A stretch of 64,000 nt of DNA. Origin: Rhizobium rhizogenes. Its GTDB lineage: Bacteria > Pseudomonadota > Alphaproteobacteria > Rhizobiales > Rhizobiaceae. Position 1 is the stretch's first letter, and every line of letters starts with the position of its first letter. The position numbers and the translations under genes are program-made. A model generated the notes under the pieces. It had not been told where the DNA came from. It saw nothing but the letters and a program-made list of their open reading frames with translations, and did not search any database. The DNA is taken from contig NZ_CP019702.2 of assembly GCF_002005205.3 (NCBI RefSeq), forward strand, positions 859,501 to 923,500, written 5' to 3'. Positions 6,384-58,938 of the stretch are shown here, in pieces.

Positions 6384-7571
6384 TTACCCGGCGACCGGCT
6401 GAAACAGCCGGTCGAGGTTCGTTTCCGGCGGGCAGAACCAGCGCGGTCCCGCCTCCGTCATATATACGATATCTTCGAGACGGACGCCGCATTCGCCATA
6501 AACGCACAGCATCGGCTCGATGGAAAAGCACATGCCCGGTTGAAGAGCCGTGGCATTTCCAGCAACGATATAGGGTTCTTCGTGAATATCCAGCCCAAGC
6601 CCGTGGCCGGTGCGATGCGGCAGGCCGGGAAGCTGGTAATCCGGGCCGAAACCGGCCGCTTTCAGGCTGTCGCGCGCGGCCCTGTCCACATCGGAACAGG
6701 CAGCGCCGATACGGGCCGCCGCGAAGGCCGCAGCCTGCGCGTCGCGCTCGGCGTTCCAGAGGAAACGCTGACGCTCGGTCGGTTTGCCGAAGACATAGGT
6801 TCGGGTGATATCGGAACGATAGCCGTGAAGAATGGCACCGAGATCGACCAGCACCATATCGCCTTCGTTCAGCGTCTGCGCATAGGGCACGCCGTGCGGA
6901 TAGGCCGTCGCCTCGCCGAACTGCACCGCCACGAAAAGCGGCTTCAGGCCAAGCGCGATATGGGCGGCGTTGACGAAATCCGCCACTTCAGTGGTGGAAA
7001 TGCCCGGACGCAGCCCTTCGAACACCGCCTTCTGCACGCCGTAGCTTGCATTCATCGCCGTCTGGATGAGGGCGATTTCAGCGGCGGACTTGACCTGCCG
7101 CTGGGCAACGATCAGCGGCTGGGCGGAAATGATCCGCCCTTCCAGACGCTGCATCAGGGCCGATGCGAAAACGAAGGGTGTTGCGGGATCGATGGCGACA
7201 AGATGACCGGGACAGGCAAGAGAGCCGATACGCCCCGCCATCAGATCGAAAGGACTTTCATCCTCTTCCCAGACAGCGACCTCGCCCGGAATACGGATCA
7301 GGGTCTGGAGTTTCGGCTCTTCAAAAGTCGGGCTGATATAGACCGGCGCGCCTTCGGCCGGCACCAGGGCGCCATGAATGCGCTCCGAAAGGCCAAGCGA
7401 CAGGCCGGTATAATAGGTCAGCGACGATGATGCATCGAGCCAGACCGCCTTCACATTCTGCTGGATCATCCGCGCCTGAAGTCCGCGCAGCCGCAAACTG
7501 AATTCGTCTTCAGCGATCGATGAAACCGCGATCGGCTGAAACCGCTTCAGCGCCTCTTGAAAGTCTGCCAT
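6384..7571 (-). CDS. M24 family metallopeptidase (Xaa-Pro aminopeptidase/dipeptidase-like)
   Basis: A 395-aa creatinase/prolidase-fold enzyme. The N-terminal domain (about residues 1-170) is followed by the pita-bread catalytic domain. Metal ligands are recognisable: Asp in LVDLGA, Asp in GYRSDITRTYVFG, His in HRTGHGLGLDIHEEPY, Glu in SIEPML, and Glu in RLEDIVY. It cleaves Xaa-Pro bonds or related substrates in the cytoplasm. The ATG at 7571 follows a GGGGAGAG ribosome site; the longer upstream frame has no support. Lying directly before dppA on the same strand, it probably processes imported dipeptides. Ectoine-hydrolase-like enzymes share this fold, so substrate identity is open. Confidence 0.85.
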   Translation of the reverse strand: MADFQEALKRFQPIAVSSIAEDEFSLRLRGLQARMIQQNVKAVWLDASSSLTYYTGLSLGLSERIHGALVPAEGAPVYISPTFEEPKLQTLIRIPGEVAVWEEDESPFDLMAGRIGSLACPGHLVAIDPATPFVFASALMQRLEGRIISAQPLIVAQRQVKSAAEIALIQTAMNASYGVQKAVFEGLRPGISTTEVADFVNAAHIALGLKPLFVAVQFGEATAYPHGVPYAQTLNEGDMVLVDLGAILHGYRSDITRTYVFGKPTERQRFLWNAERDAQAAAFAAARIGAACSDVDRAARDSLKAAGFGPDYQLPGLPHRTGHGLGLDIHEEPYIVAGNATALQPGMCFSIEPMLCVYGECGVRLEDIVYMTEAGPRWFCPPETNLDRLFQPVAG

Positions 7572-7883
7572 TCTCTCCCCGCCGCTTTCGGGCGCACAGG
7601 CACAACGTGCCGGCAACCTCCCAAGCGTTCTTTTGCCCATGCTTAACCACAGGCCGGAGGCTAAGCAATGGGCCTGCACCTTCCACCGCCACAAAACTGT
7701 GCATATTTATCTAGACATAACGAAATCGTGATCGACGCGCGTCCGATTCCCGCACTCGTCACCTTGACGGAGGAAACCAAAATCCCCCGGAAATCCAAGG
7801 GGAAGACACCGGAGTCCCCGCGACGCATATCCGGCGCGCGGAAACGCGCGGATGAAAACACTTCAAAAAAGGCCCTGAAAAGG

Positions 7884-8000
7884 AAAAAGCCTGCCGCGGG
7901 AGGAGGTGCGGCAGGCTTCAAACTTGATCGGCGACTGGGAGGAGGAGTGTCACCGATCCACATCGAGCGACGCTGGGAGGAGGAGTGCGTCGCTTCGATG
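7884..8000 (-). ncRNA. Alpha-r14/CcsR-like small RNA with three CCUCCUCCC loops
   Basis: On the minus strand three successive hairpins each display ACUCCUCCUCCC or ACCUCCUCCC in the loop: 7961-8000, 7926-7958 and 7888-7917. The last has a 10-bp perfect stem followed by TTTTT, so it is also the rho-independent terminator. A CTATAT box ends about seven bases before the first hairpin. A transcript of about 117 nt with repeated anti-Shine-Dalgarno loops matches the alphaproteobacterial alpha-r14 family (NfeR1 of Sinorhizobium meliloti). CcsR 'cuckoo' RNAs of Rhodobacter share the motif. Family members pair with ribosome-binding sites of transporter mRNAs and are made under stress or symbiosis. 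The structure is seen; the transcript and its targets are inferred. Confidence 0.85.
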
Positions 8001-8006
8001 GTTGGA

Positions 8007-8012
8007 ATATAG
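8007..8012 (-). promoter_or_regulatory. Minus-10 box (CTATAT) of the small RNA gene
   Basis: The minus strand reads CTATAT, the rhizobial sigma-70 consensus -10, seven bases before the foot of the first small-RNA hairpin. No convincing -35 is found at 17-18 bases upstream, so an activator or an alternative sigma factor may be needed. The rest of the 7572-8122 gap contains no coding frame I can support. Confidence 0.5.
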
Positions 8013-8122
8013 CGACATCGGCGATTTTTAACAGAGCAAGTCTCGCAATGCAGCATTGCATTTCTGCATAGCTTGAGAATTCCTGCTTGGTTTTTCAGCA
8101 CTCCCGCCAAACCCGAAGGAGA

Positions 8123-8872
8123 TCAGCTTTCCCGGTGCACCTGAAAACCGGCAAAGGACTGGTTGACCGGCATGAGTTCGAGACTGTTGATGTTGATATG
8201 CTTGGGCTGCGAGGCGACCCAATAGATCGTGTTGGCGATATCGTCGGCCGTGATCGGGTTCACGCCCTTATAGAGATTGTCCGACACATCCTGATTGCCG
8301 CCGGTGCGCACCAGCGTGAACTCCGTTTCGCACATGCCGGGTTCGATCGAGGTTACCCGCACACCCTTGCCATGCAGGTCGGAGCGGAGGCCGAGCGAGA
8401 ATTGCCGCAGGAAGGCTTTTGTCCCGCCATACACATTGCCGCCGGTATAGGGCCAGTGCGCCGCAACCGACGAAAGGTTGACGACAATGCCCCGGCGTTC
8501 GATCAGCGTCGGCAGAAGATGATGGGTGATGTTCAGGAGACCGGTGATATTGGTGTTCACCATGGTCTGCCAGTCCTTGAGCGGCACCTGCGGCGCAGGC
8601 GCGGTGCCAAGCGCCAGGCCGGCATTGTTGACGAGAATGTCGATATCCCGGAAACCTTCCGGCAAAGCGGAAAGCGCCTTTTCGGTCGCGTCCTCATCCG
8701 TGATATCGAAGGCGGCGCCATAAAAGGCCGAACCGAGTTCAGCCGCCAGCGCCTCCAGCCGTTCCGCGCGCCGGCCCGTGCCGATGACCTTCCAGCCTTC
8801 CTTGACGAAACGCCGCGCCGTGGCCTGTCCGAAACCGGACGTCGCGCCTGTGATAAGGATGGTGCCGCTCAT
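8123..8872 (-). CDS. sdh: Serine 3-dehydrogenase (short-chain dehydrogenase/reductase)
   Basis: A 249-aa classical SDR enzyme. The cofactor motif GATSGFGQ is at residues 8-15, NNAG near 86, and the catalytic Ser plus YGGTK (Tyr-x3-Lys) near 140-157. From memory the sequence is very close to the characterised Agrobacterium tumefaciens NADP-dependent L-serine 3-dehydrogenase, which also acts on 3-hydroxypropionate-like acids; E. coli YdfG is the wider relative. The start overlaps the stop of the upstream deoxyribosyltransferase gene by four bases, so the two are co-translated. Confidence 0.88.
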   Translation of the reverse strand: MSGTILITGATSGFGQATARRFVKEGWKVIGTGRRAERLEALAAELGSAFYGAAFDITDEDATEKALSALPEGFRDIDILVNNAGLALGTAPAPQVPLKDWQTMVNTNITGLLNITHHLLPTLIERRGIVVNLSSVAAHWPYTGGNVYGGTKAFLRQFSLGLRSDLHGKGVRVTSIEPGMCETEFTLVRTGGNQDVSDNLYKGVNPITADDIANTIYWVASQPKHININSLELMPVNQSFAGFQVHRES

Positions 8873-33273: not shown

Positions 33274-33353
33274 AAACGTCCATTCCGGAATGGCAGGCTG
33301 CGGCCGCCATCCGGAATGAACTGACGACACCGCGATCAGCCTGGGAGGAGGCC

Positions 33354-34256
33354 GTGAACACCATGACCGAGAAGAATAAAGTCGCCCTCATCGGCGCGGG
33401 CGCCATGGGCGGCGCGATCGGCACCCGGCTCATCGAAACAGGCAATCAGCTGACGGTTTTCGATCTGGATGCGGAAAAGGTGGCGGCACTGACCAGCCTC
33501 GGCGCGCAGAGCGCCGGCACGGCGGCGGAAGCGGCGGCTGTCTCCGATGTCGTGATCCTCAGCCTCAATTCGCCGAAGATCGTCCGTATCGCCGTCTTCG
33601 GCAAGGATGGCGTGGCGGCAGGGGCACGGCCCGGCACGCTGATCATCGACATGTCCTCCATCGATCCGGAAGCGACCAGGGAACTAGCCGCCGATGCCGC
33701 CGAGAAGGGGCTGCGCTGGGTGGACAGTCCCCTTTCGGGCGGCGCGCCCAAGGCACTCATCGGGCAATTGACGCTGATGGCGGGCGGCAGCGAGAAGGAT
33801 GTGGCCGATGCCCATCGCGTGCTGCAGCACGTGGCCAGCAACTACACCCATATGGGACCCTGCGGCGCCGGGCAGACGACCAAGCTGATCAATCAGGTTC
33901 TCTGCGGCCTGAATTTCCTTGCTGTCGCGGAAGCAACGCAGCTTGCGCTCGACGCGGGCGTCGATGCCGCCAAAATCCCGCAAGCGCTGAAGGGCGGCCG
34001 GGCGGACAGCGCCATCCTGCAGGAATATATGCCGCGTTATGTGGCGAAGGATTACCGCCGCACCGGCCGCATCGACAATATGGTGAAAGACCTGAACGGC
34101 GCGCAGGATCTTGCCCGGCGCACCAACACCGCCATGCCGCTGACGACGCTTTGCGCCGAGGTGCACCGCATGCTGACGGCTGCGGGACTAGGCGGCGAGG
34201 ATCAGGCCGCGCTGATGGAATTTTTCAGCGGCGCGAAACGCACCTTCCCGGACTGA
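33354..34256 (+). CDS. NAD(P)-dependent beta-hydroxyacid dehydrogenase (HIBADH/GarR family)
   Basis: 300 aa. N-terminal Rossmann motif GAGAMGGAIGTRLIE (residues about 13-27), substrate-binding DSPLSGGAPKALIGQLTLMAGG near 125-146, catalytic Lys in GQTTKLINQVL near 178, and a C-terminal helical domain. The family includes 3-hydroxyisobutyrate dehydrogenase, tartronate semialdehyde reductase and relatives. It follows idnO after 80 bp with a GGGAGGAGG site, so it probably works in sugar-acid breakdown. GTG at 33354 or ATG at 33363 could start it. Confidence 0.82.
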   Translation: MNTMTEKNKVALIGAGAMGGAIGTRLIETGNQLTVFDLDAEKVAALTSLGAQSAGTAAEAAAVSDVVILSLNSPKIVRIAVFGKDGVAAGARPGTLIIDMSSIDPEATRELAADAAEKGLRWVDSPLSGGAPKALIGQLTLMAGGSEKDVADAHRVLQHVASNYTHMGPCGAGQTTKLINQVLCGLNFLAVAEATQLALDAGVDAAKIPQALKGGRADSAILQEYMPRYVAKDYRRTGRIDNMVKDLNGAQDLARRTNTAMPLTTLCAEVHRMLTAAGLGGEDQAALMEFFSGAKRTFPD

Positions 34257-58591: not shown

Positions 58592-58659
58592 TCTTGCAAA
58601 GAAAAAAAATGCCGCAGCGCAGCCAAAAATGGAGAAATCGTTCTCGGGAGGAGAGCACC

Positions 58660-58938
58660 ATGTATGCACCTCGTGTTTTTTTCAGCATGATCGGTGCATT
58701 GCTTGCCTTTGCGGTTGCCACATACTTCATTCACGGATCTTTCTATACGGCATTCATCCAGACGCTCATCTGTGCCGTCATTCTGCAAATCGGTTATTTT
58801 ATTGCGATTCTCGTGCTCGTTGCCCGCGAGAAGCGGCGGATGCGGGAAACCTTCGCGCGCGAGCGCGGCGCCGAGACACTGCAGGCCGACACGGCCAAGA
58901 GTCCGCCGCCGCATGGCGCCAAACTGACGGATATGTAG
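58660..58938 (+). CDS. exoX: Exopolysaccharide production repressor ExoX (SyrA family)
   Basis: 92 aa. MYAPRVFFSMIGALLAFAVATYFIHGSFYTAFIQTLICAVILQIGYFIAILVLVAREKRR has two transmembrane helices and the YAPRVF start of ExoX/SyrA/PsiA-type proteins. These inner-membrane proteins lower succinoglycan synthesis, probably after translation, by acting on the ExoY glycosyltransferase. The charged C-terminal tail is cytoplasmic. The start follows GGGAGGAG. The exoU-V-W-T neighbours support the call; exoY, its usual neighbour, is not on the other side. Confidence 0.78.
   Translation: MYAPRVFFSMIGALLAFAVATYFIHGSFYTAFIQTLICAVILQIGYFIAILVLVAREKRRMRETFARERGAETLQADTAKSPPPHGAKLTDM

What the first reader, a model, noticed from the sequence alone, without database searches (positions are those of the whole stretch)
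7884..8000. Small RNA with three CCUCCUCCC loops, one of them inside its own terminator
Three hairpins in 117 bases each present the same anti-Shine-Dalgarno loop while their stems are unrelated in sequence; the last stem is also the rho-independent terminator. This is seen directly. Alpha-r14/NfeR1 and CcsR RNAs with this motif are established regulators of transporter mRNAs, and here the gene stands just upstream of a peptidase and dipeptide transporter operon on the same strand. Regulation of that operon in cis or trans is inference. Plausible targets in the window have GGAGG-type sites, for example idnO (32518), glgC (42824) and exoX (58660).
Basis: partly seen in the sequence, partly recalled or inferred. 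Interest (0 to 1): 0.75.

Follow-up and report, generated by a model that had tools for sequence, protein, structure and literature searches.

The report
Known ar14 (NfeR1-type) small RNA
This is a member of a well-described bacterial small-RNA family that uses several copies of the same loop to block ribosome-binding sites of messenger RNAs; it is real and conserved, but ordinary.

Summary
Window 7882-8003 (minus) matches Rfam ar14 (RF02344) end to end, 120.1 bits against a 58.8 cut-off, and folds into three hairpins with CCUCCUCCC in each loop; the last is the terminator. "Identical loops, unrelated stems" is the published family definition (PMC10746234, PMC7143759; passages). The own genome holds three copies: A, B (this) and C, a four-loop form. 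B orthologs occur in 24 of 24 same-genus genomes searched; loops never vary and stem 2 covaries. Sister copies A and C coincide with Northern-detected C58 transcripts; transcription of B I could not check. Best mechanism: trans-silencing by masking Shine-Dalgarno sites (inferred). The cis link to the peptidase operon fails: that neighbour is found in 13 of 25 B loci, the upstream SDR in 25 of 25. CcsR1 membership fails. A stronger in-window site than those named lies before 33354/33363. New but unproven: an NtrC-like box in 14 of 25 B upstreams and a terminator hairpin shared by B and C.

The parts
7882..8003 (-). full-length match to Rfam ar14 (RF02344)
   Evidence: 120.1 bits, gathering 58.8, model 1-123 of 123
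7884..7999 (-). predicted transcript, about 116 nt
   Evidence: start by homology: the C58 sister C1_109477F starts at the fifth base of the ar14 match; end read at the U run; this copy's transcript itself not seen
7962..7999 (-). hairpin 1, loop CCUCCUCCC at 7975-7983
   Evidence: fold; 2 of 12 pairs changed on both sides, 91.7% of cells paired in 21 distinct orthologs
7926..7958 (-). hairpin 2, loop CCUCCUCCC at 7937-7945
   Evidence: fold; 6 of 10 pairs changed on both sides, 100% of cells paired
7884..7919 (-). hairpin 3 with loop CCUCCUCCC at 7898-7906, followed by UUUUU: intrinsic terminator
   Evidence: fold; 11 of 12 pairs never vary; core 28 nt identical in 25 of 25 B copies and 27 of 29 C copies
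8007..8012 (-). -10 element CTATAT
   Evidence: read directly; same CTATAT as given for NfeR1 in PMC10746234 (passage); TATAT invariant in the 25 B upstreams. At 17 nt spacing the -35 reads CTCTGTT, not CTTAGAC
8048..8068 (-). LsrB-type box region: TGCA-N5-GCAA at -69 and TGCA-N5-GCAT at -61
   Evidence: TGCA-N5/6-GCA found near -70 in 24 of 25 B, 17 of 25 A and 10 of 29 C upstreams (C starts guessed by a pattern); resembles TGCA-N6-GCAT at -72 to -60 of NfeR1 (PMC10746234 passage); binding not tested
8084..8100 (-). NtrC-like TGC-N11-GCA at -101 to -85
   Evidence: 14 of 25 B upstreams against 0.17 expected from base shuffles; related sequences, so not independent; absent in 11 of 25; binding not tested
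8123..8872 (-). upstream neighbour: short-chain dehydrogenase, linked to the RNA gene in 25 of 25 B loci
   Evidence: Pfam PF00106, tblastn
6384..7571 (-). downstream M24 peptidase, neighbour in 13 of 25 B loci (window included)
   Evidence: Pfam PF00557, tblastn
33341..33351 (+). best candidate target site in the window: CTGGGAGGAGG before a 3-hydroxyisobutyrate-dehydrogenase-type gene (GTG 33354 or ATG 33363)
   Evidence: lowest duplex energy of 51 called starts; TGGGAGGAG kept in 13 of 13 sequences of 94% identity or more, the window's own included

Best explanation
A free-standing small RNA of the ar14 (NfeR1) family, one of three paralogs in an Agrobacterium-like genome. It is transcribed from its own promoter, ends at its third hairpin, and acts in trans: each loop offers CCUCCUCCC, which pairs with purine-rich Shine-Dalgarno sites (GGGAGGAG-type) and blocks translation of several mRNAs, many probably for solute-binding proteins of transporters. 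Shown here: family membership, structure, conservation, promoter-like elements, complementary sites. Inferred: transcription of this copy, control by a LsrB-type regulator, silencing of targets.
For: ar14 match over the full model; fold z -8.5; loops invariant and stem 2 covarying in 25 B sequences; B ortholog in 24 of 24 same-genus genomes searched; ar14 matches in 116 of 121 genomes drawn from the family, 108 over the cut-off; sister copies A and C coincide with Northern-detected transcripts C1_109477F (about 120 nt) and C2_1831446F (about 160 nt) in PMC3738593 (passages); NfeR1 silences mRNAs through these loops in S. meliloti (PMC10746234 passages). In the own genome 10 of 31 genes with GGGAGGAG before the start match solute-binding Pfam families against 2 of 39 for two other SD-like motifs (Fisher p 0.004).
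Against: No transcript of this copy seen: the C58 paper's main text holds no tag beginning C2_12, where the C58 B copy would fall; its supplement could not be read (supplement look-ups are capped at 0) and Wilms 2012 is not held. The target enrichment weakens on one replicon: 10 of 25 against 2 of 12, p 0.26; for any transport protein it is 12 of 31 against 7 of 39, p 0.06. One control motif, TAAGGAGG, is hardly commoner than its reversed pattern (12 against 10), so its 10 frames may include non-genes. The proven NfeR1 target ntrB is not favoured: 22 of 51 window starts pair better. No sigma-70 consensus promoter found by the scan.
Confidence: 0.75

Rival explanations
1. Silent or near-silent duplicate: paralog A does the work and B is rarely transcribed.
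For: In S. meliloti six copies exist and only one was reliably detected by Northern (PMC7143759 passage); in the C58 paper A and C are in the Northern table and no tag at the B position is in the main text.
Against: Loops, pairing and promoter-like blocks of B are kept in 25 genomes.
Confidence: 0.15
2. A general aSD decoy that mimics the 16S rRNA tail and lowers translation broadly rather than acting on a set of targets.
For: The loop contains CCUCC, the core of the 16S anti-SD (recalled).
Against: The loop is longer than that core, and GGGAGGAG sites fall before solute-binding genes more often than two other SD-like motifs do, although not significantly within one replicon.
Confidence: 0.06
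3. The RNA regulates the adjacent peptidase/dipeptide operon in cis, as a leader or attenuator.
For: Same strand, peptidase start about 310 nt downstream, and that start ranks 5 of 51 in duplex energy.
Against: The RNA ends in a strong terminator; the peptidase is the neighbour in 13 of 25 B loci only, while the RNA and its loops are kept in 25 of 25.
Confidence: 0.04

Closest known systems
ar14 / alpha-r14 family, NfeR1 (Smr14C2, SmelC397) of Sinorhizobium meliloti, RF02344
   Same: Length, three hairpins, identical CCUCCUCCC loops, divergent stems, CTATAT -10, TGCA...GCA box near -70.
   Different: ntrB pairing is not favoured here; the NtrC-like box lies at -101 to -85 instead of about -116 to -101; the -35 is not CTTAGAC.
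SmelA099-type four-hairpin RNAs (PMC3927594, passages)
   Same: Same loop motif; paralog C of this genome is a four-loop form (22 of 29 C loci show four exact loops).
   Different: The window copy has three hairpins.
CcsR1 (RF02791)
   Same: Same loop motif in two hairpins.
   Different: 35.3 bits against a 65.3 cut-off.
AbcR1/AbcR2 (alpha-r15)
   Same: aSD motifs aimed at transporter mRNAs (PMC7143759 passage); AbcR1 depends on VtlR, the LsrB ortholog, in A. tumefaciens (PMC7486931 abstract and passages).
   Different: Different family; none of the five matches up to E 1 at this locus is AbcR/suhB.

Membership tests
ar14 (RF02344) | covariance-model score over the gathering cut-off, full length | tested here: met
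   120.1 against 58.8 bits, 1-123 of 123
ar14 (RF02344) | three hairpins with identical unpaired CCUCCUCCC | tested here: met
ar14 (RF02344) | stems of divergent sequence held by pairing | tested here: met
   stem 2 covaries strongly, stem 1 weakly (two outer pairs unpaired in 9 and 10 of 21); stem 3 hardly varies and so says nothing on covariation
ar14 (RF02344) | own transcript of about 115-125 nt | not testable with these tools
   only sister copies have Northern data in what I could read
ar14 (RF02344) | trans-silencing through the loops | not testable with these tools
   complementary sites only
CcsR1 (RF02791) | covariance-model score over the gathering cut-off | tested here: not met
   35.3 against 65.3 bits
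NfeR1-NtrBC feedback loop | favoured pairing at the ntrB start | tested here: not met
   the frame just upstream of the ntrC match (TIGR01818 699.5 bits), taken as ntrB by position, gives -10.6 kcal/mol; 22 of 51 window starts pair better; crude duplex energy without accessibility
NfeR1-NtrBC feedback loop | NtrC site in the promoter | tested here: inconclusive
   TGC-N11-GCA at -101 in 14 of 25 B upstreams; 8 of 25 A upstreams also hold the pattern, but at scattered places; position differs from S. meliloti and binding is untested

The most novel reading that the evidence does not exclude
The three ar14 paralogs of agrobacteria have been split between regulators: copy B carries an NtrC-like box that a published alignment reported as not evident in A. 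tumefaciens, so nitrogen control of aSD RNAs would reach beyond legume symbionts by way of this paralog, acting on a target set other than ntrB; and the terminator hairpins of B and C are held identical by gene conversion or by an unknown function of the stem itself.
Probability: 0.15. Interest if true: 0.4.

Novelty: new member of a known kind. Interest (0 to 1): 0.15.

Why it matters
The family, structure and mode of action were already published.

Tried and rejected
Cis-regulation of the downstream operon: rejected on synteny. CcsR1, Scr3202 and anti-hemB weak matches: below cut-off. ntrB as a conserved target: not favoured here. VrsA as the four-loop paralog C: considered because both lie on the C58 linear chromosome and VrsA is VtlR-controlled; dropped because VrsA is about 300 nt and C about 160 nt. 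Published VtlR box GCAT-N3-TG-N3-T: absent in the window copy, present in 11 of 25 B upstreams. NfeR1 promoter pattern CTTAGAC-N17-CTATAT before a loop in genome contigs: 0 matches. First covariation count used a mis-registered stem 1 and was replaced. Grouping by score put L027 and L056 in the wrong paralog; corrected by sequence and synteny. My gene caller is crude: 51 starts, and it missed the idnO and exoX starts.

Rows dropped: three same-genus ar14 matches under the cut-off (49.1, 35.6 and 33.1 bits) were not grouped; 6 of 25 A rows were left out of the A conservation count; of 43 GGGAGGAG sites 12 had frames under 80 aa; of 58 control sites 17 had such frames and two of the remaining 41 were duplicates. 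Searches used stricter filters that can lose weak matches.

Full report
What is there. The minus strand of 7882-8003 carries three CCTCCTCCC in 86 bases, where 0.50 are expected in the whole 64 kb on both strands. The RNA folds at -59.6 kcal/mol, z -8.5, into three hairpins with the motif unpaired in each loop; the third is followed by UUUUU. Rfam ar14 (RF02344) matches over its whole length at 120.1 bits.

Family. PMC3927594 (passages) describes the same for SmelA075 with three and SmelA099 with four hairpins. So the pattern that drew attention is the published family definition. CcsR1 is not met (35.3 bits against 65.3).

Genome and paralogs. The own genome (5.48 Mb, three contigs) has three ar14 loci: A on C1, B (this) and C on C2. 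Each of the 24 same-genus genomes searched has an A-like and a B-like copy by sequence, B being confirmed by its neighbours. The 28 further copies over the cut-off in these genomes form group C; with the own one, 22 of 29 C loci show four exact loops, the extra one about 40 nt upstream. Of the 16 same-order genomes outside the family, one has matches over the cut-off. In a draw of 121 genomes of the family, 116 have a match and 108 one over the cut-off; in a draw of 289 of the class, 15 have a match and only the own genome is over the cut-off. G006 has replicon lengths that I recall as those of A. fabrum C58; its A and C hits coincide with C1_109477F (109477-109594) and C2_1831446F (1831446-1831607) of PMC3738593, with Northern bands of about 120 and 160 nt (passages). 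This supports both the identification and the transcript start used here (fifth base of the ar14 match, window 7999). The C58 B copy would lie at 1230301-1230418 of the second contig; no tag beginning C2_12 is in that paper's main text.

Conservation. In 25 B sequences (21 distinct) the loop bases are invariant (36 of 36). Stem 2 has 6 of 10 pairs with change on both sides and 100% of cells paired. The covariation score of the whole structure is reached by 0 of 500 shuffles and by none of the slid versions, though relatedness inflates this and one of five measures (further pair types) does not exceed the shuffles. In stem 3, 11 of 12 pairs never vary, and its 28-nt core is identical in 25 of 25 B and 27 of 29 C copies, while A has another sequence. 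In A the stems are slow in general (19 of 25 rows: stem 1 21 of 22 columns invariant, stem 2 16 of 20, stem 3 19 of 22), so slow stems alone are not peculiar to B. Gene conversion between B and C, or a sequence-bound function, would explain the shared hairpin; I cannot tell which.

Promoter. CTATAT stands 7 nt before the start. A block TATGCA-N-GCAATGCTGC lies around -70 to -50 in A and B; TGCA-N5/6-GCA near -70 is found in 24 of 25 B, 17 of 25 A and 10 of 29 C upstreams, like the LsrB site of NfeR1 (PMC10746234, passage). A TGC-N11-GCA element stands at -101 to -85 in 14 of 25 B upstreams (0.17 expected by base shuffling, at most 2 in 1000 rounds); 13 of these 14 are the loci that also have the peptidase neighbour, so they are one clade plus one. 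The same pattern turns up in 8 of 25 A upstreams at scattered places, half of them inside the LsrB-type block. [quoted passage not shown] tumefaciens promoters were added (passage); I do not know which paralog they used. The element sits about 15 nt nearer than in S. meliloti and no binding has been tested, so this is a lead only.

Neighbours. The SDR gene and the nucleoside-deoxyribosyltransferase-type gene upstream are kept in 25 of 25 B loci; the M24 peptidase downstream is found in 13 of 25, the window included (L027 was held only to 1.5 kb downstream, which would have shown it in part). The cis hypothesis is therefore not supported.

Targets. A relative at E 1e-60 or better is found in 16 of 25 genomes; TGGGAGGAG is kept in 13 of 13 sequences of at least 94% identity, own included, and in none of the 4 more distant ones, of which three have other GGAGG-type sites. 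Genome-wide, GGGAGGAG-N3-13-ATG occurs 43 times against 8 for the reversed pattern; of 31 with a frame of 80 aa or more, 10 match solute-binding families. Two other SD-like motifs gave 2 of 39, p 0.004; on C2 alone 10 of 25 against 2 of 12, p 0.26; for any transport protein 12 of 31 against 7 of 39, p 0.06. Of the two control motifs AAAGGAGA is clearly commoner than its reverse (46 against 5) but TAAGGAGG is not (12 against 10). This agrees with the transporter bias published for NfeR1 but is not proof. The ntrB start, a proven S. meliloti target, is unremarkable here.

Verdict. A real, conserved ar14 RNA; mechanism by analogy well founded; not novel in kind.

Noticed in passing
window 58616-58789 (-): Rfam Atu_L1 (RF02504, 215.7 bits) lies antisense over the start of the exoX/SyrA-like gene (ATG 58660, +), so exoX may already have its own antisense RNA.
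   Followed up: partly
window 33341-33363 (+): 11-nt perfect complement of the ar14 loop before a 3-hydroxyisobutyrate-dehydrogenase-type gene; nine of the eleven bases kept in close orthologs.
   Followed up: yes
L003, L057-L084 (paralog C): Four-loop form of the same RNA on the second large replicon; 22 of 29 loci with four exact loops.
   Followed up: partly
G431:C1:3182853-3183288, also G367, G400, G435, G336: Two or three ar14 copies in tandem about 155-180 bp apart in other genera of the family (listing capped).
   Followed up: no
window 7886-7919 and paralog C: Terminator hairpin core identical between paralogs B and C (25 of 25 and 27 of 29), while stem 2 of B drifts with compensation.
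   Followed up: partly
own genome: GGGAGGAG sites before ATG are concentrated on C2 (31 of 43), unlike AAAGGAGA sites (13 of 46).
   Followed up: no
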